This document shows, in pieces, positions 6,636-12,745 of a DNA stretch of 56,995 nucleotides. Numbering within the stretch: position 1 is the stretch's first letter; every line of letters begins with the position of its first letter. The translations under genes and the position numbers were made by a program. Under the pieces are notes generated by a model. The model searched no databases, was not told where the DNA came from, and saw nothing but the letters and a program-made list of their open reading frames with translations. Source of the stretch: an uncultured Pelagibacteraceae bacterium (lineage in GTDB: Bacteria; Pseudomonadota; Alphaproteobacteria; Pelagibacterales; Pelagibacteraceae); NCBI GenBank assembly GCA_902581695.1, contig CACHOW010000004.1:1-56995 (forward strand). The letters run 5' to 3'.

Positions 6636-8324
6636 ATGAATAAAATTCTATCTTATTCGATTATTTTATTAATTTTATTTGCATGGTGGTCTTCCTTAAC
6701 GATTGGTCTATCCTCAGATGAATATTTCCATCATATTAATGGCCTTGTAAGATATAAATTTTTAATTTCTTTAGGCGAGATACAAAAATTTGAGTTTAGA
6801 AATAATCAATTTTATCCAGGCCTATATGACACAATTTCTTATGGATTAGGACAAATAGTTTTTTTAATTAATAAGAAACTCTATGCAAACAACATAGATG
6901 TTATAATGCATTTTGTTAATATATCATTTTCAACTTTAAGTATTTTAGGTCTTTATCTATTAACTCAAAGATTGTTTGATAAAAAGATTGCATTAATCAC
7001 GTCTTTACTCACTTTACTTAATCCTTTTTTCTTTGGACATATGGGAATGAATTCAAAAGATGTTATCGTTTTTTTTGCTTTTATTTGGTCTTGTTATTAT
7101 TTTTATCGTTATTGTACAGAAGACAAAGGATTTTTTAAAAACCTTATTTTATTTTCTTTATTTTTTGGTTTTGGCTGCGGTGTAAGACTAACTTTTGTTG
7201 TTGTTATTTTTCCTGTAATTATTTTAGGTCTATTTTATCTCTTCAGAAAGTATAGATCTAATTATTTGTATTTAGCTAAAAGATTAATTTTACACATACC
7301 AACAGTTTTTTTTATATCAGTAATCTTAGTTATTTTATGTTGGCCACATATAATGGTAGAAATAAATAAAGGTAATTTTTTTGAATTTATATCCTTAGTT
7401 ATAAAAAATACGATTAATTGGAATGATGGTCCTAAGATAGGATTGTTAAACGGAGATTTTTACGAGGTTTTTAATACACCCAAAAGCTATTTTTTAACCG
7501 TTGTAGTTTATAGATTACCTTTTTATTTCTCTTTGTTAATTATTGCGTCCTATTTTTTATTTTTTTTAAAAAAACTTGACATAGGAAATGAAATTAAAAA
7601 CTATAATCAAAAGTTTTTCTCAGTGAATTTAATTGCTTTTTTTCCAGTTTTTTTAGCACTCATCTTAGGAGTAAATATCTATGATAATTTAAGATTATTC
7701 TTATTTATAATTCCACTTTTTTGTATAATCGCAGCATTATCTTTAGATTATTTATTTAAAACTTTTAAAGAATCTTTATCAACAAAGATAGGTTTAGTTA
7801 CTATTTTAATATTATTTTCATTATCTTTCTACAGATTCATCATTCTTACTCCATATCAATATACTTATGTTAATTACAGTTATCCGTCATTAGGTAAAAG
7901 TGTGGAAAAATTTGAACAAGATTACTGGGGTACGTCTTACAAAGAACTTGTTAATAACTTAGGAAATAAATTCTCAAAAGAAGAAATTCAAAGATTTAAA
8001 ATCGCTGATTGTTACGGTGGTGATAGTACATTGTTATATTATTTAAATAAAAATTTTGGTGTTAAAAGATTATATAACATTGACGAACGACCCCTAAGAG
8101 CAACCCATATCGTTTTAACTAATAGAGCATTTTTAAATGCAATAAATAATCCAAGTGTTAAGGATTTGGTTAATGAAAAAGGCATCATACTCTTATCAGA
8201 TATGGAGAAAGTTGTAAGATCCCCAAATGTAAAAACTACTTGCTTTACTCAATATTCAGGAAAAGATGAAGTTGTAGTCTTTAGAGATGGAGCAGCTTTA
8301 TCTTCTTTAAGAAAATTAGATTAA
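6636..8324 (+). CDS. GT-C fold membrane glycosyltransferase (GT39/ArnT-like)
   Basis: A 562-aa inner-membrane protein with 10-12 hydrophobic segments in its first ~410 residues and a soluble C-terminal part (from about residue 415). The first luminal loop carries SSDEYFHHINGLVRY, with the acidic pair expected of GT-C enzymes (dolichyl-phosphate-mannose mannosyltransferase, ArnT and oligosaccharyltransferase-like families). A second typical patch is LTLLNPFFFGHMGMNSKD. Such enzymes transfer sugars from polyprenyl-phosphate donors to lipid or protein acceptors on the periplasmic face. Acceptor and sugar cannot be told. Its stop codon is part of the first hairpin repeat of the accessory array (8321-8354). 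Confidence 0.7.
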   Translation: MNKILSYSIILLILFAWWSSLTIGLSSDEYFHHINGLVRYKFLISLGEIQKFEFRNNQFYPGLYDTISYGLGQIVFLINKKLYANNIDVIMHFVNISFSTLSILGLYLLTQRLFDKKIALITSLLTLLNPFFFGHMGMNSKDVIVFFAFIWSCYYFYRYCTEDKGFFKNLILFSLFFGFGCGVRLTFVVVIFPVIILGLFYLFRKYRSNYLYLAKRLILHIPTVFFISVILVILCWPHIMVEINKGNFFEFISLVIKNTINWNDGPKIGLLNGDFYEVFNTPKSYFLTVVVYRLPFYFSLLIIASYFLFFLKKLDIGNEIKNYNQKFFSVNLIAFFPVFLALILGVNIYDNLRLFLFIIPLFCIIAALSLDYLFKTFKESLSTKIGLVTILILFSLSFYRFIILTPYQYTYVNYSYPSLGKSVEKFEQDYWGTSYKELVNNLGNKFSKEEIQRFKIADCYGGDSTLLYYLNKNFGVKRLYNIDERPLRATHIVLTNRAFLNAINNPSVKDLVNEKGIILLSDMEKVVRSPNVKTTCFTQYSGKDEVVVFRDGAALSSLRKLD

Positions 8325-8354
8325 GAGGTTCGTTCTGTTGCCAGGTGTCCTTAA
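8321..8354 (+). repeat. Hairpin repeat, copy A
   Basis: First of five same-orientation copies with core CGTTCTGTTGCCAGGTG. The core folds as TCTG-TTGC-CAGG (4-bp stem, tetraloop), and the flanks pair TTAAG with CTTAA, with a few bulged bases between. The left arm uses the TAA stop of the glycosyltransferase, so the element starts exactly where that gene ends. It lies between convergent genes (the GT and the 54-aa peptide). Confidence 0.75.
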
Positions 8355-8361
8355 ACTATAA

Positions 8362-8526
8362 TTATTTATTTCCAACTCGAGTCAACAAACCACCAACAAC
8401 TATTAATACAATAGGAGTAAATGATGATAATGGTCCCATAAACCCTGTTAGATTTATGTTTCCAAAATTTCCCAATAAGAAATCTGCTGCGCCAAGTGCT
8501 ATTAATATGTAACCAAGTATTTGCAT
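8362..8526 (-). CDS. 54-aa small membrane protein
   Basis: This ORF is too short for the supplied track. It runs from ATG (MQILGYILIALGAADFLLGN) to a TAA and encodes two hydrophobic stretches, residues ~2-19 and ~29-48, separated by a short polar Asn/Gly turn, with a basic tail ending RVGNK. It looks like a two-helix hairpin membrane protein. It follows the zinc-ribbon gene by 9 bp on the same strand, so the two form a small operon occupying the first segment of the repeat-bounded array. Function unknown. Confidence 0.6.
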   Translation of the reverse strand: MQILGYILIALGAADFLLGNFGNINLTGFMGPLSSFTPIVLIVVGGLLTRVGNK

Positions 8527-8535
8527 AAATGTACT

Positions 8536-8793
8536 TTATTTTGTTACAGGTGTACCATCAAGATAATAATTATTTTGATCCAGAACACTTGTGTGCCAGT
8601 TACTTTTGCAATGTTGACATTCTACAAAAGGTTGAGATTTTTCACCTGCTGGAATTAAAGGAATGAAAAAAAGTCTAAAGTAGTCCTTACTTGTTTTGAC
8701 TAAATATCTTTTTATGAAATTACAATTTGGGCAAATAAATTTGCCTTCTGCTTCTGTAAAATATTTCGGTCCATTTCCAAAAATAATAATCAT
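8536..8793 (-). CDS. Zinc-ribbon domain protein
   Basis: An 85-aa protein with two CxxC knuckles, CPNC around residue 22 and CQHC around residue 60, about 35 residues apart, typical of small zinc-ribbon proteins (zinc_ribbon_15-like). Between them is the hydrophobic stretch DYFRLFFIPLIP, which may pack against the membrane or a partner. The N-terminus MIIIFGNGPKYFTE resembles that family. It starts only 2 bp from copy B of the hairpin repeat and leads a two-gene unit with the 54-aa membrane protein. Function unknown; nucleic-acid or protein binding is possible. Confidence 0.7.
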   Translation of the reverse strand: MIIIFGNGPKYFTEAEGKFICPNCNFIKRYLVKTSKDYFRLFFIPLIPAGEKSQPFVECQHCKSNWHTSVLDQNNYYLDGTPVTK

Positions 8794-8794
8794 A

Positions 8795-8822
8795 TATAAG
8801 GGGCATTCTGTTTCACCCTATA
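8795..8822 (+). repeat. Hairpin repeat, copy B (degenerate)
   Basis: This copy keeps GGGGCATTCTGTT of the core but has lost the CCAGG half. Its outer arms still pair (TATA-GGG with CCC-TATA, one bulged A). Unlike the other copies it lies between divergent genes, directly in front of the zinc-ribbon start. It is the weakest of the five. Confidence 0.5.
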
Positions 8823-8860
8823 ATTTAAATACTAACAGAAAATAAAGACTTTTTGAAACA

Positions 8861-8883
8861 CTTCAATGTATTCTTCAATGTAA
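8861..8883 (+). repeat. Short direct repeats, CTTCAATGTA x2
   Basis: Two near-tandem copies of CTTCAATGTA(A) with a 12-bp period lie between repeat copy B and the polysaccharide-lyase-like gene. The same unit occurs three times on the other side of that gene (10047-10080). A small hairpin AGAAAC-CTT-GTTTCT follows at about 8900. Confidence 0.7.
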
Positions 8884-8948
8884 GTTTCTCATATTTGGCA
8901 GAAACCTTGTTTCTCGACTTCATTGTTATAAGGAGGTAAATTTAGAAA

Positions 8949-9998
8949 ATGTTAAAGATAGCATTAATACTAATTTATTTACTATTTAGTTCATCAACAG
9001 TTTTTGCAAATAAAATTGATTGGAAAAAGTGTTTAGGTGAAAATGATACTTCATCATCTTATTCAGCAAAACCTGCTTATTGTTATGGAATTGACTTAAA
9101 GTTACGTTCAGAAAAAGAAATAAAAATATTTATTTATAATCAAAATAATCAAGAAAAATTAGAAAATGATCAAAAAAAAGAATTACCAAAATTATTTGAT
9201 AAAAATAACAAATTAATCAAAGATCTAATTAAATATAAAGAATATATTAAAGTAGTTGAGGAAGATTTTTCAAAAGAATTTAAATATAAAAAAAAAATTT
9301 ATAAAAAAAAATTTCGCTATGACTACACTTTGGTCGGTACACCTAAAAAAAAATATATTGATGCTTTCAAAAAATCTATGAATATAAGCAATCAAGAGAT
9401 GGTTATTACTCTTAGACCTGGTACTAGACAATGGAAAGGTGATAAAAAAAATCGAACAGAAAGAGCAGAATGGGGATTTTATATAATCAATCCTTTAACT
9501 AAATTAATTAATAAAGATAAATTCATCAGGATTGCATTTGATTTTAAATTACCAAAAAATAGTAAAGATTTATTTAAAAACAAAAGAACCATGATTTTTC
9601 AAGCAAAACATGATGGGAACAACAATAACAATATGCCCGGATGGAGTCCTGCATTTGCTTTTTATGTTCAAAAAGGAGGTTCGGCAACTTGTGTTGATTA
9701 TAACAATCAGAGAGATAATATTAATGATCAAATTTATAATAATACTCCTATAAGGATTACAAATATTTATGATGGAAATTGGCATAGAGTAGTTTTTCTA
9801 ATTAAGTACGGTAATGGAAAAAAAGAGGGGCATTGTTCAGTAAAAATAAATGATGAACTTATATTTTCAAAAGTATTTTACGATAACGATTTACTGCCAA
9901 AAGATAATATATTGACTAGATTTGGTGTTTATCGTGATGAGTATGATAAAATTCAGGAAGTTACTTTTGATAATATTGAAGTTGGTTATTACAAATAA
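8949..9998 (+). CDS. Secreted polysaccharide-lyase-like protein
   Basis: A 349-aa protein with a clear signal peptide (LILIYLLFSSSTVFA, cleavage near residue 20) and a Lys-rich low-complexity segment (about residues 60-120). The C-terminal ~200 residues resemble the jelly-roll polysaccharide lyase family (PF14099-like): an R-x-E strand (NRTERAEWGFYI), F-D-F-K-L-P, FQAKHDGNNN, NWHRVVFLIKYGNGKKEGHC, and the end RFGVYRDEYDKIQEVTFDNI. Such enzymes cleave glucuronan- or alginate-type polymers; the substrate here is unknown. It has an unusually strong Shine-Dalgarno for this window, AAGGAGG 12 bp before the ATG. Secreted polysaccharide lyases are not typical of SAR11, and the gene is boxed by repeats, suggesting acquisition. 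Confidence 0.6.
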   Translation: MLKIALILIYLLFSSSTVFANKIDWKKCLGENDTSSSYSAKPAYCYGIDLKLRSEKEIKIFIYNQNNQEKLENDQKKELPKLFDKNNKLIKDLIKYKEYIKVVEEDFSKEFKYKKKIYKKKFRYDYTLVGTPKKKYIDAFKKSMNISNQEMVITLRPGTRQWKGDKKNRTERAEWGFYIINPLTKLINKDKFIRIAFDFKLPKNSKDLFKNKRTMIFQAKHDGNNNNNMPGWSPAFAFYVQKGGSATCVDYNNQRDNINDQIYNNTPIRITNIYDGNWHRVVFLIKYGNGKKEGHCSVKINDELIFSKVFYDNDLLPKDNILTRFGVYRDEYDKIQEVTFDNIEVGYYK

Positions 9999-10000
9999 TT

Positions 10001-10026
10001 GTTATAGACGCACATGCGTGTATAAC
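10001..10026 (+). other. Hairpin directly after the lyase-like gene
   Basis: GTTATA-G-ACGCA-CA-TGCGT-G-TATAAC forms 6 + 5 bp of stem with one G/G mismatch and a 2-nt loop, starting 2 bp after the stop codon. No T-run follows, so it is not a standard intrinsic terminator. It could protect an mRNA 3' end or be a recombination or protein-binding site. Confidence 0.55.
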
Positions 10027-10045
10027 GGTTAAATGTTGGTTAATC

Positions 10046-10080
10046 ACTTCAATGTAACTTCAATGCAAACTTCAATGTAA
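10046..10080 (+). repeat. Short direct repeats, CTTCAATGTAA x3
   Basis: Three near-perfect 11-bp units (47-57, 58-68 with one T-to-C change, 70-80 after a 1-bp insert; add 10000). The same unit occurs twice upstream of the lyase-like gene, in the same orientation, so the gene is flanked by direct-repeat clusters inside the outer hairpin repeats B and C. Confidence 0.75.
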
Positions 10081-10121
10081 GTTCCTTTTGGAAATTGACT
10101 GGGGACAACGGAAACCTTTGG

Positions 10122-10150
10122 AAAGGGGCGTTCTGTATCCGGGTTCCTTT
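10122..10150 (+). repeat. Hairpin repeat, copy C
   Basis: A diverged copy: AAAGGGGCGTTCTGTATCCGG and then GTTCCTTT. The inner stem is kept by compensating changes (TCTG pairs with CGGG around loop TATC), and the outer arms AAAGG and CCTTT pair although they differ from the other copies. It separates the lyase-like segment from the adhesin-E-like segment. Confidence 0.65.
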
Positions 10151-10185
10151 ATTTACTTACTATAGTTAACACCAAATAAGTGAAG

Positions 10186-10210
10186 AGTGTATGCTCTAAG
10201 TGTATGCTCT
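10186..10210 (+). repeat. 13-bp tandem repeat before the adhesin-E-like gene
   Basis: AGTGTATGCTCT occurs twice with a 13-bp period (10186-10197 and 10199-10210), followed by five T. AAGAG at the left can pair with CTCTT at the right, giving a weak terminator-like fold. An extended -10-like sequence TGCTATAGT ends 6 bp before the chosen ATG at 10239. Confidence 0.6.
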
Positions 10211-10238
10211 TTTTGTTAAAATCTGCTATAGTGTGATT

Positions 10239-10637
10239 ATGAAAAAAATATTTTTTTTTATCTTTTTTATTTTATTTTTTAGCACTAGTGTTATTGCAGA
10301 TTGGACTTTCATCGCATCAGGTGGTAATGGGGCAATAAAAATTTATATTGATAAAAAAACAATAAGATCCAATGGAAACACCGTAGTTTGGTGGCAACTC
10401 GATTCATATAAAGAAAAAATACCAGGTAGTGATTTAACTATCTTTTCAAACATTGCTAAAACCGAAGGTGATTGTCTTAGAGATGGGAGAAAAGATTTAT
10501 ATATTGCGTACTATGATCAAAAAATGGGAAAAGGTAATAAAGTATTAGAAGATACAAATCCATCAAAAGAGTGGGTTTATAACGAACCTGGTGAAGTTTA
10601 TTATAATACTTTAAGATTTGTGTGTGATAATAAATAG
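10239..10637 (+). CDS. Secreted surface-adhesin E-like small protein
   Basis: A 132-aa exported protein. I start it at the ATG giving MKKIFFFIFFILFFSTSVIA, a classical signal peptide; the track start 13 codons earlier would bury it. The mature part begins DWTFIASGGNGAIKIYIDKK, then has a W-W-Q-L strand, a single Cys pair (EGDCLRDGRK and RFVCDNK), and the pattern W..i......y.Ya.yD of the surface-adhesin E (PF16747-like) family, a small periplasmic or outer-membrane fold of unknown role. It is the only gene between hairpin repeats C and D. Confidence 0.6.
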   Translation: MKKIFFFIFFILFFSTSVIADWTFIASGGNGAIKIYIDKKTIRSNGNTVVWWQLDSYKEKIPGSDLTIFSNIAKTEGDCLRDGRKDLYIAYYDQKMGKGNKVLEDTNPSKEWVYNEPGEVYYNTLRFVCDNK

Positions 10638-10654
10638 TTCTATTTAATTAGTAG

Positions 10655-10679
10655 GGGGCGTTCTGTTGCCAGGTGCCCC
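10655..10679 (+). repeat. Hairpin repeat, copy D (best conserved)
   Basis: This copy forms a complete 25-nt hairpin: GGGGCG pairs with TGCCCC (one G-U), then one bulged T, then TCTG-TTGC-CAGG. No T-tract follows. It lies 17 bp after the adhesin-E-like gene. Confidence 0.8.
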
Positions 10680-10737
10680 GAACTTTGTACCATTATTCGT
10701 GAATAATTTGAATTGAAAAGATAGAATTTTAAAGAGT

Positions 10738-10758
10738 ATTCCGTCCATATTCCGTCCA
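10738..10758 (+). repeat. ATTCCGTCCA x2 before the nuclease gene
   Basis: Two direct copies of ATTCCGTCCA, 1 bp apart, lie 26 bp before the nuclease start. A third copy overlaps the last base of the gene's stop region (12643-12652). The word is unusually GC-rich for its surroundings. Confidence 0.7.
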
Positions 10759-10783
10759 GAGTTTTTGTGTTAGCTTATTTATT

Positions 10784-12643
10784 ATGAAAGAAAAATGGAC
10801 AAAAGAAATCGTACTTAAAGACGCAAAAAAATATAATTCAAAATCAGAATGGGCGAAGAACTCAAATAGTTCATATAATTCTGCGAGAAAAAATGGTTGG
10901 TTTGCAAAAGCAACTAGTCACATGGATAGACCAGACATGACGAGAAAATGGACAAAACAAAATGTTATAAAAAATGCAAAAAAATTTAAAACAATAAAAG
11001 AATGGACCAATAATTTTAGTGGAGCTTATGATGCAGCATTTAACAAAGGTTGGTTGAGGGAAGCAACAGCTCATATGGTTAGACCAGCCTGGAAAGGATT
11101 AAGAATTTGGACAAAAGAAAAAATCCTTGATGATGCTAAGAAATTTAAACATAGAGTTAGATGGGGTGAAAAGAGTGGAGGAGCATATGCTGCAGCACAA
11201 AGAATGGGTATTTTAAAATTAGCCACTAAACATATGATAAGACCAAGTACCAAGGGAGTTAATTTAGGTCGAAGAAGTCCAGCTAAATGGACTGATGAGC
11301 TTTTAAAAAATTCAGCCTCTAAATATAAAACTGTTAAAGAATGGCGAACTAAAGAAGAAAGTGCTTATGCTACTGCATCAGCAAGAGGACTTTTAAAAGA
11401 ACTCACAAAACGAATGATAAAAATTGGAGAGAAAGGATACTGGACAAAAGAAAAAGTTAAACATTCTGTGCTAAAATATAAAACAAAGGTTGAATGGATA
11501 ACTAATGATCCAGCTGCATATAGGGCATGTTTAAAAAATAGTTGGATTGATGAACTAACTAATCACATGACACCAATTGGAAATAAAAAAATGCGTTGTG
11601 TTTATAGCATTTCAGTTGTTGGAAAAAAAATAATTTATATAGGGTTAACAGGTTATTTTGAAAGAAGAATGAGAGACCATTTTGAAACTAAAAGAATAAC
11701 AAAATTGATTAAAGAACATGGCAAAAATTCAATAATAACCAAACAATTAACAAAATATATTTTAGCAGATGAAGCTATCAAAATTGAAGACAAATTAATT
11801 AATCACTATAGAAAAAAGAAATATATTGTCCTCAACCGCGCTAAAGCAGGAAGTCTTGGAGGAACAACCATTAAATGGACAAAAGAAAAAATTTTAATTG
11901 AAGCTAAAAAATATCAAACAATAAAAGATTGGTTAAAGAAAGATAAACTAAGCTACTCTGCAGCTTGGTCGATGAATATTCTAAATCAGGCCACAAAACA
12001 CATGACCAGATTATGGGAAAAAAAATGGACAGATGAAAAAGTTATTAAAACTGCCTTAAAGTTTAAATCTTTTAAAACTTGGGTAGAAAAAGATAAAAAA
12101 TCTTATGCGGCAGCTAGAGCTAGAAAATTGTTAAATGACCCTAGAATAACTAAACATCTTATAAAAATTTCAGGATTGCCAATATATAAATGGACAAAAG
12201 ATAAAGTATTAAAAGACTCAAAAAAATACAATTCAAGATCAGAATGGAAAAAAAATTCTCCTGCAGCATATAGAGGCGCAAGAGAAAGAGGATATTTTTT
12301 AAAAGCTGTTGCACATATGAAGAAGCCTCCGCTACACGGAATTTGGACAAAGGAAAATATTATTAAAAATGCAAAAGCATTTAAATCTATAAAAGAATGG
12401 ATGAAAAAGGAACCAGGTGCATATGGAGCTGCTCAAAAGAAAAAGCTTCTTAAAAAAGCCACTCAACATATGAAAAGATTATGGGAAAAAAAGTGGGATA
12501 AAAAAACTGTTATGAAAAGCGCAAGAAAATTTAAATTATCTTCTCGATGGAAAGATACTTATCCCAGTGCCCCTGCTGCTGCTAGACGTTTAGGTATCTA
12601 CAAACAAGCAACCAAGCATATGACTGATGGAAGATTCAAATAA
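10784..12643 (+). CDS. GIY-YIG nuclease embedded in ten ~50-aa repeats
   Basis: A 619-aa, very basic protein. Residues ~1-270 are five repeats of 51-60 aa, 271-363 are a GIY-YIG nuclease-like domain, and 364-619 are five more repeats. Each repeat follows K-W-T-K-E-x-(I/V)-..-A-K-K-Y/F-K-(S/T)-x-x-E-W ... A-Y-x-A-A-x-x-x-G-x-L-x-x-A-T-x-H-M. The nuclease part shows VYSI...IYIGLTG, ERRMRDHF with the expected Arg, and a Glu in AIKIEDKLINHY, then VLNRAKAGSLGG. GIY-YIG domains cut DNA in homing, repair and restriction enzymes; repeats of this W...HM type occur in phage and mobile endonuclease-like proteins and are probably DNA-binding, which is inference. It is bounded by hairpin repeats D and E and by ATTCCGTCCA copies. 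It is not interrupted, so probably functional. Confidence 0.75.
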   Translation: MKEKWTKEIVLKDAKKYNSKSEWAKNSNSSYNSARKNGWFAKATSHMDRPDMTRKWTKQNVIKNAKKFKTIKEWTNNFSGAYDAAFNKGWLREATAHMVRPAWKGLRIWTKEKILDDAKKFKHRVRWGEKSGGAYAAAQRMGILKLATKHMIRPSTKGVNLGRRSPAKWTDELLKNSASKYKTVKEWRTKEESAYATASARGLLKELTKRMIKIGEKGYWTKEKVKHSVLKYKTKVEWITNDPAAYRACLKNSWIDELTNHMTPIGNKKMRCVYSISVVGKKIIYIGLTGYFERRMRDHFETKRITKLIKEHGKNSIITKQLTKYILADEAIKIEDKLINHYRKKKYIVLNRAKAGSLGGTTIKWTKEKILIEAKKYQTIKDWLKKDKLSYSAAWSMNILNQATKHMTRLWEKKWTDEKVIKTALKFKSFKTWVEKDKKSYAAARARKLLNDPRITKHLIKISGLPIYKWTKDKVLKDSKKYNSRSEWKKNSPAAYRGARERGYFLKAVAHMKKPPLHGIWTKENIIKNAKAFKSIKEWMKKEPGAYGAAQKKKLLKKATQHMKRLWEKKWDKKTVMKSARKFKLSSRWKDTYPSAPAAARRLGIYKQATKHMTDGRFK

Positions 12644-12652
12644 TTCCGTCCA
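12643..12652 (+). repeat. ATTCCGTCCA, third copy after the nuclease gene
   Basis: Same orientation as the two copies at 10738-10758, so the nuclease gene sits between direct repeats of this 10-mer. Its first base is the last base of the stop codon. Confidence 0.7.
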
Positions 12653-12717
12653 CAGGCCGACTCATAAGGTTGCATTTTGAAATTAATATTGAGAACACTA
12701 ACTAATTAGAAAAAAGT

Positions 12718-12745
12718 TAGGGGCGTTCTGTTGCCAGGTGTCCTA
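12718..12745 (+). repeat. Hairpin repeat, copy E (right end of the array)
   Basis: Core GGGGCGTTCTGTTGCCAGG followed by TGTCC, the inner stem identical to copies A and D. The outer arms TAGG and CCTA pair, with one bulged G and G-U pairs. The element ends at the base before the stop codon of the convergent 39-aa gene, mirroring how copy A abuts the glycosyltransferase stop. Confidence 0.8.

What the first reader, a model, noticed from the sequence alone, without database searches (positions are those of the whole stretch)
10784..12643. GIY-YIG nuclease placed symmetrically between five and five modular repeats
Seen: ten ~50-aa repeats (K-W-T-K-E ... E-W ... A-Y-x-A-A ... H-M) split exactly 5 + 5 by a 93-aa GIY-YIG domain with its Arg and Glu in place. 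Known: related W...HM repeats occur in phage and mobile endonuclease-like proteins. Inference: each repeat may bind a DNA segment, making a long-site, modular DNA cutter; the symmetry suggests a target with two half-sites around the cut. Repeats 6 and 9 end alike (LWEK), hinting at internal duplication.
Basis: partly seen in the sequence, partly recalled or inferred. Interest (0 to 1): 0.7.

Follow-up and report, generated by a model that had tools for sequence, protein, structure and literature searches.

The report
Modular DNA-cutting enzyme in mobile cassette
A marine SAR11-type bacterium carries a phage-style DNA-cutting enzyme, built from a nuclease flanked by up to ten small DNA-reading modules, as the only gene of a tiny mobile cassette whose two ends are copies of the tail of the cell's tmRNA gene.

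Summary
In detail: ORF 10784-12643 (619 aa) has a GIY-YIG domain (Pfam E 1e-8) between five and five ~50-aa W...HM repeats. The 5+5 symmetry is not conserved: relatives have 0-6 repeats before and 0-7 after (12 of 75 symmetric), and the closest are 6+3, 5+3 and 2+5. A modular DNA cutter is well supported: catalytic residues conserved, purifying selection, basic helix-turn-helix-like modules with variable third-helix positions, and the same module fused in phages to other nucleases and helicases.

The missed part is the setting. The gene is the sole cargo of a 2.07-kb element bounded by direct copies of the tmRNA 3' end, with 11-bp-period repeats 50-60 bp inside each end that resemble integrase arm sites. 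Relatives lack the island at this spot. Near-identical copies sit beside the tmRNA gene in two SAR11 single-cell genomes (98% identical, in flanks only 83% identical); distant ones sit at tRNA-Met and tRNA-Leu genes. The element has no integrase. Similar tmRNA-bounded cassettes without the nuclease are common in SAR11.

Best reading: a phage-type homing-class nuclease carried by a non-autonomous integrative cassette, probably acting on phage or rival DNA. That role is inferred and untested.

The parts
10784..12643 (+). 619-aa nuclease gene: repeats 1-5, GIY-YIG, repeats 6-10
   Evidence: ORF; Pfam GIY-YIG; repeat HMM; purifying selection
10793..11569 (+). repeats 1-5 (aa 4-262)
   Evidence: helical HTH-like module in AF2 models
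11597..11824 (+). GIY-YIG catalytic domain (aa 272-347)
   Evidence: Pfam; closest solved fold I-TevI 1ln0, TM-score 0.70 by target length; catalytic residues conserved
11873..12622 (+). repeats 6-10 (aa 364-613)
   Evidence: AF2 model mean pLDDT 87.7
10650..10678 (-). left cassette end: copy of the tmRNA (ssrA) 3'-end hairpin
   Evidence: the repeat finder; Rfam RF01849 E 3e-6; intact tmRNA on contig C1
12715..12743 (-). right cassette end: second copy of the tmRNA 3'-end hairpin
10739..10757 (.). left arm-like direct repeats TTCCGTCC x2, period 11
   Evidence: period-11 excess near cores against shuffles
12644..12663 (.). right arm-like direct repeats (TTCCGTCC / GCCGACTC), period 11
8322..8350 (-). 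outermost tmRNA 3'-end copy, left border of the whole island
8800..8818 (-). degenerate tmRNA-end-like core (weak)
   Evidence: 9.1 bits; sequence; coordinates
10125..10147 (-). degenerate tmRNA-end core between neighbouring cassettes
   Evidence: family D5
8949..9998 (+). neighbouring cassette cargo: polysaccharide lyase, with its own arm-like repeats at 8860-8884 and 10046-10081
   Evidence: Pfam
10200..10637 (+). neighbouring cassette cargo: surface-adhesin E-like protein, arm-like repeats at 10187-10209
   Evidence: Pfam

Best explanation
The protein is a phage-type, free-standing GIY-YIG endonuclease of the homing class. One I-TevI-like cutting domain is carried between two strings of helix-turn-helix-like modules that read a long DNA site. 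In this SAR11-type genome it is the sole cargo of a 2.07-kb non-autonomous integrative cassette. The cassette's attachment cores are copies of the tmRNA 3'-end hairpin, and its arm-like repeats lie just inside both ends, so a tyrosine integrase supplied in trans most likely moves it. The nuclease is kept by selection and most likely cuts foreign DNA, meaning phages or rival elements, rather than driving insertion into the tmRNA gene itself. Shown here: domain anatomy, cassette ends, filled and empty sites, recent transfer between species, purifying selection and phage kinship. Inferred: DNA reading by the modules, integrase in trans, and the target.
For: Anatomy and conservation. Modules as DNA binders: basic, variable at helix-2/helix-3 positions, fused to Vsr/MTES_1575-like nucleases and SF2 helicases in phages. 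Phage kinship: PHROG 20046; no match in about 780 other genomes of the class and phylum; SAR11 copies form one clade, sister to Vibrio phage copies, in a tree otherwise viral. Cassette: tmRNA-end repeats; identity with relatives starts and stops at the core, 98% inside against 83% outside; the island is absent at this junction in three relatives; 11-bp-period repeats near cores, 12 of 40 and 16 of 70 against 0.0 and 0.4 in shuffles; similar cassettes without the nuclease are common. All five SAR11 copies lie between repeats containing tmRNA or tRNA sequence.
Against: No cleavage or binding data exist. No integrase was found: most genomes searched have a single 309-325-aa, probably Xer-type, tyrosine recombinase, and none of 18 viral records holding the core has one, so integrase in trans is unproven. 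PADLOC finds no defence family. The Vibrio phage copies also sit between hairpin repeats, which leaves room for the nuclease itself to act at such sites.
Confidence: 0.5

Rival explanations
1. The nuclease drives its own cassette: it cuts cassette-free tmRNA or tRNA ends and the break is repaired by copying the cassette in (homing), with a tmRNA or tRNA fragment restoring the gene end.
For: All five SAR11 copies lie between copies of RNA-gene sequence. Vibrio phage copies also sit between hairpin copies found only there in 100 kb searched, with a single hairpin in the phage lacking the genes. T4-type SegB, a GIY-YIG enzyme, cuts within tRNA genes (PMC13096335).
Against: The window's own genome keeps an intact, unoccupied tmRNA 3' end on contig C1, which such an enzyme should cut. 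Most tmRNA-bounded cassettes lack the nuclease. None of 79 viral relatives lies within 500 bp of a tRNA, and most lack flanking repeats.
Confidence: 0.2
2. Neutral passenger: a phage homing endonuclease gene caught in a cassette, with no benefit to host or cassette.
For: Rare: 4 of 397 SAR11-family genomes. Repeat number changes quickly.
Against: Purifying selection over all regions, conserved catalytic residues, and presence in cassettes at three different RNA genes.
Confidence: 0.15
3. An accessory recombination factor: the nuclease works with an integrase or with recA to excise or insert cassettes in trans.
For: A modular DNA-binding nuclease sits in an element with integrase-like arm repeats of 11-bp period.
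Against: Arm-like repeats of many sequence types occur in cassettes whose genomes lack the nuclease.
Confidence: 0.1

Closest known systems
Free-standing GIY-YIG homing endonucleases of T4-like phages (SegA-G, SegB)
   Same: GIY-YIG cutter not inside an intron, phage kinship, sporadic presence, alleles with and without the gene in Vibrio phages
   Different: Here up to ten W...HM modules, carried in a bacterial chromosomal cassette; cutting untested
I-TevI catalytic domain (PDB 1ln0)
   Same: Closest solved fold of the nuclease domain
   Different: I-TevI is intron-encoded and, from general knowledge, has a zinc finger and a different DNA-binding region rather than this repeat
PHROG 20046
   Same: Same nuclease plus repeat architecture
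   Different: Unnamed, function unknown; this copy is chromosomal
Dehalococcoides ssrA-specific islands (PMC2764846)
   Same: Tandem elements separated by direct repeats of the tmRNA gene end
   Different: Those carry recombinase genes; the SAR11 cassettes mostly hold one to a few genes without one
Tycheposons and integrase-type genomic islands at tRNA genes
   Same: RNA-gene-end repeats as borders
   Different: No recombinase in the cassette

Membership tests
GIY-YIG nuclease superfamily | GIY-YIG domain above family cut-off | tested here: met
   35.5 bits against 22.6
GIY-YIG nuclease superfamily | Catalytic Tyr, Tyr, Arg, Glu, Asn | tested here: met
   invariant or at least 90% over 50 relatives
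Free-standing homing endonuclease | Homologous loci with and without the gene | tested here: met
   Vibrio phages R11Z with, ValKK3 without; SAR11 cassette island present or absent
Free-standing homing endonuclease | Cuts the allele that lacks the gene | not testable with these tools
   needs biochemistry; the intact tmRNA end in the same genome argues against the tmRNA site
Integrase-type genomic island at tRNA/tmRNA gene | Direct repeats of the RNA gene end at both borders | tested here: met
   also L016 and L017; the L018 repeat covers the tRNA-Leu 5' part
Integrase-type genomic island at tRNA/tmRNA gene | Own integrase gene | tested here: not met
   no recombinase in the cassette by gene content; one Xer-like tyrosine recombinase, on another contig
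Integrase-type genomic island at tRNA/tmRNA gene | Arm-type direct repeats inside the ends | tested here: inconclusive
   11-bp-period repeats strongly enriched; binding not shown
Integron cassette | IntI integrase and attC sites | tested here: not met
   no integrase near the array; ends are tmRNA-derived
TALE-type modular DNA reader | ~34-aa two-helix repeat with two-residue code | tested here: not met
   repeat is ~50 aa with three to four helices
Known anti-phage defence family | Match to a PADLOC model | tested here: not met

The most novel reading that the evidence does not exclude
SAR11 genomes carry an undescribed kind of integron-like array: integrase-less cassettes of one to a few genes bounded by tmRNA 3' ends and by integrase arm-like repeats of several specificities, mobilised in trans. 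This nuclease is a re-targetable, repeat-coded DNA cutter that such cassettes use against phages or each other.
Probability: 0.3. Interest if true: 0.85.

Novelty: new variant of a known kind. Interest (0 to 1): 0.62.

Why it matters
The W...HM module is an uncharacterised, portable, apparently DNA-reading repeat that occurs in variable numbers on nucleases and helicases. If it has a per-module code it could be a new programmable DNA reader. The setting shows how streamlined SAR11 cells, among the most abundant in the ocean, may exchange single genes through tiny cassettes at RNA-gene ends without carrying an integrase, and links that traffic to phage-type nucleases.

Tried and rejected
Two half-sites implied by 5+5: rejected, symmetry is not conserved.

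GIY-YIG as sole driver of the cassettes: lowered, because most cassettes lack it and an intact empty tmRNA end coexists.

tRNA proximity as a property of the whole nuclease family: rejected, 0 of 79 viral relatives.

Direct-repeat flanking as a property of the whole family: rejected, only the Vibrio phage clade shows it clearly.

Known fold of the module in PDB: no significant match. The viral structure library returned only uncharacterised phage proteins, the best from BcepSauron.

Pfam, NCBIfam and PADLOC names for the repeat: none.

Integrase in viral records that hold the tmRNA core: none; of the 12 scanned for RNA families, nine carry a phage tmRNA gene above cut-off.

Arm sites in pelagiphage HTVC019P: no convincing period-11 repeats near its integrase.

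The genome-contig scan found only three SAR11 loci with its narrow patterns.

Literature: no paper found on SAR11 tmRNA cassettes in the searchable library.

Full report
Observation. The gene is real and as described: 619 aa, GIY-YIG at aa 272-347 between five and five ~50-aa repeats. It belongs to PHROG 20046, function unknown. The nuclease fold is closest to I-TevI (Foldseek E-value only 0.018, TM-score 0.70 by target length), and its catalytic residues are conserved in 50 relatives. dN/dS against three SAR11 relatives is about 0.07-0.26 by region, so the protein is maintained.

The repeats. Each is modelled as three helices plus a short fourth (mean pLDDT 89.4 and 87.7). The low pTM (0.48, 0.34) means the relative placement of modules is not determined. 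Over 360 distinct repeats the structural positions are conserved, while the four most variable positions are 29, 21, 25 and 32. Position 21 falls in helix 2, and 25, 29 and 32 are spaced i, i+4, i+7 along one face of helix 3, as expected of a helix-turn-helix that reads different bases. Repeats are basic. In phages the same module is attached to Vsr/MTES_1575-like nucleases (the Pfam matches are below its curated cut-off; PHROG 3339, 'homing endonuclease') and to SF2 helicases. DNA binding is therefore likely but not shown. Repeats 1-2 resemble 8-9 (28/44 and 26/44), so part of the symmetry comes from internal duplication.

The setting. The gene lies between two 29-bp direct repeats (10650-10678, 12715-12743) that match the 3' end of the alphaproteobacterial tmRNA on the minus strand (below Rfam's gathering score because only the end is present). 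The genome's intact tmRNA gene is on another contig and is followed by a tRNA-Leu. A further copy at 8322-8350 and two degenerate ones at 8800 and 10125 divide 8322-12743 into about four units, carrying a zinc-ribbon protein, a polysaccharide lyase, an adhesin-like protein and this nuclease. In three relatives (G240, G457, G302) the two flanking genes are directly adjacent, so the island is an insertion.

Related copies. Among 397 genomes of the family, four including this one have the gene; a fifth copy came from a genome scan. In SAG-MED01 and AG-422-L21 it sits beside the tmRNA gene itself, between tmRNA-end copies. These two cassettes are 98% identical where the neighbouring chromosome is 83% identical, and similarity stops at the core: recent transfer of the cassette. 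In AG-343-D15 it is between copies of part of tRNA-Met. In G378 it is between 168-nt repeats that include the 5' part of tRNA-Leu. The five form one clade, sister to Vibrio phage proteins, in an otherwise viral tree (bootstrap not fully settled, and the G378 branch is long). About 780 other genomes of the class and phylum have none.

Cassettes in general. The tmRNA-end motif occurs once or more in 341 of 397 genomes, often in tandem with up to eight copies, against zero for the reversed control pattern. In ten fetched regions, units between copies hold mostly one to a few ORFs, and no gene there was recognised as an integrase; the only tyrosine recombinases in those genomes lie elsewhere. Inside the cores, direct repeats with 11-bp period are strongly enriched (12 of 40 and 16 of 70, against 0.0 and 0.4 in shuffles); one side also shows period 12 (7 of 40). 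By established knowledge of lambda-type integrases, such repeats are what arm-type binding sites look like; that identification is an inference. Of twelve genomes searched, eleven have a tyrosine recombinase, in ten of them a single one of 309-325 aa that I take to be Xer (not verified by phylogeny), so an integrase would have to come from elsewhere. Dehalococcoides ssrA islands are a known parallel, but carry recombinase genes (PMC2764846).

Phage parallel. In Vibrio phage R11Z two paralogous GIY-YIG genes each sit between copies of a terminator-like hairpin. In 100 kb searched the exact or near-exact hairpin is found only at these three places, plus one degenerate copy, and phage ValKK3, which lacks both genes, has one hairpin there. 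Tandem duplication explains part of this. It is the main reason to keep the homing rival alive.

Mechanism. I favour cargo of a trans-mobilised cassette with a nuclease aimed at foreign DNA. The cassette form does not require the nuclease. An intact unoccupied tmRNA end sits in the same genome, which argues against that site as the target, unless the assembly is mixed or the target needs flanking sequence. Phage homing enzymes commonly cut competitor phage DNA (general knowledge). The target remains untested.

Noticed in passing
L155-L164 (SAR11 genomes G033, G081, G115, G003, G001, G107, G188, G051): Tandem arrays of small cassettes, mostly one to a few genes, bounded by tmRNA 3'-end copies, many with arm-like 11-bp-period repeats of several sequence types and no recognised integrase; single cores also lie far from the tmRNA gene (G051).
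   Followed up: partly
window 8800-10147: Polysaccharide lyase gene in its own apparent cassette with ACTTCAATG arm-like repeats at both ends; similar arm-like repeats next to a tmRNA-end core in G465.
   Followed up: partly
L137:2570-4603, L144:2423-5056: Phage SF2 helicases with four or more W...HM modules at the C-terminus.
   Followed up: partly
L121, L128, L141, L149: W...HM modules fused to a Vsr/MTES_1575-like nuclease domain.
   Followed up: partly
L218:46143-48591 (Vibrio phage R11Z): Two tandem GIY-YIG genes bracketed by three copies of one terminator-like hairpin; single copy in ValKK3.
   Followed up: yes
L018:8907-10853 (G378): 168-nt direct repeat covering the 5' part of tRNA-Leu and upstream sequence, the opposite end from usual integrase sites.
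   Followed up: no
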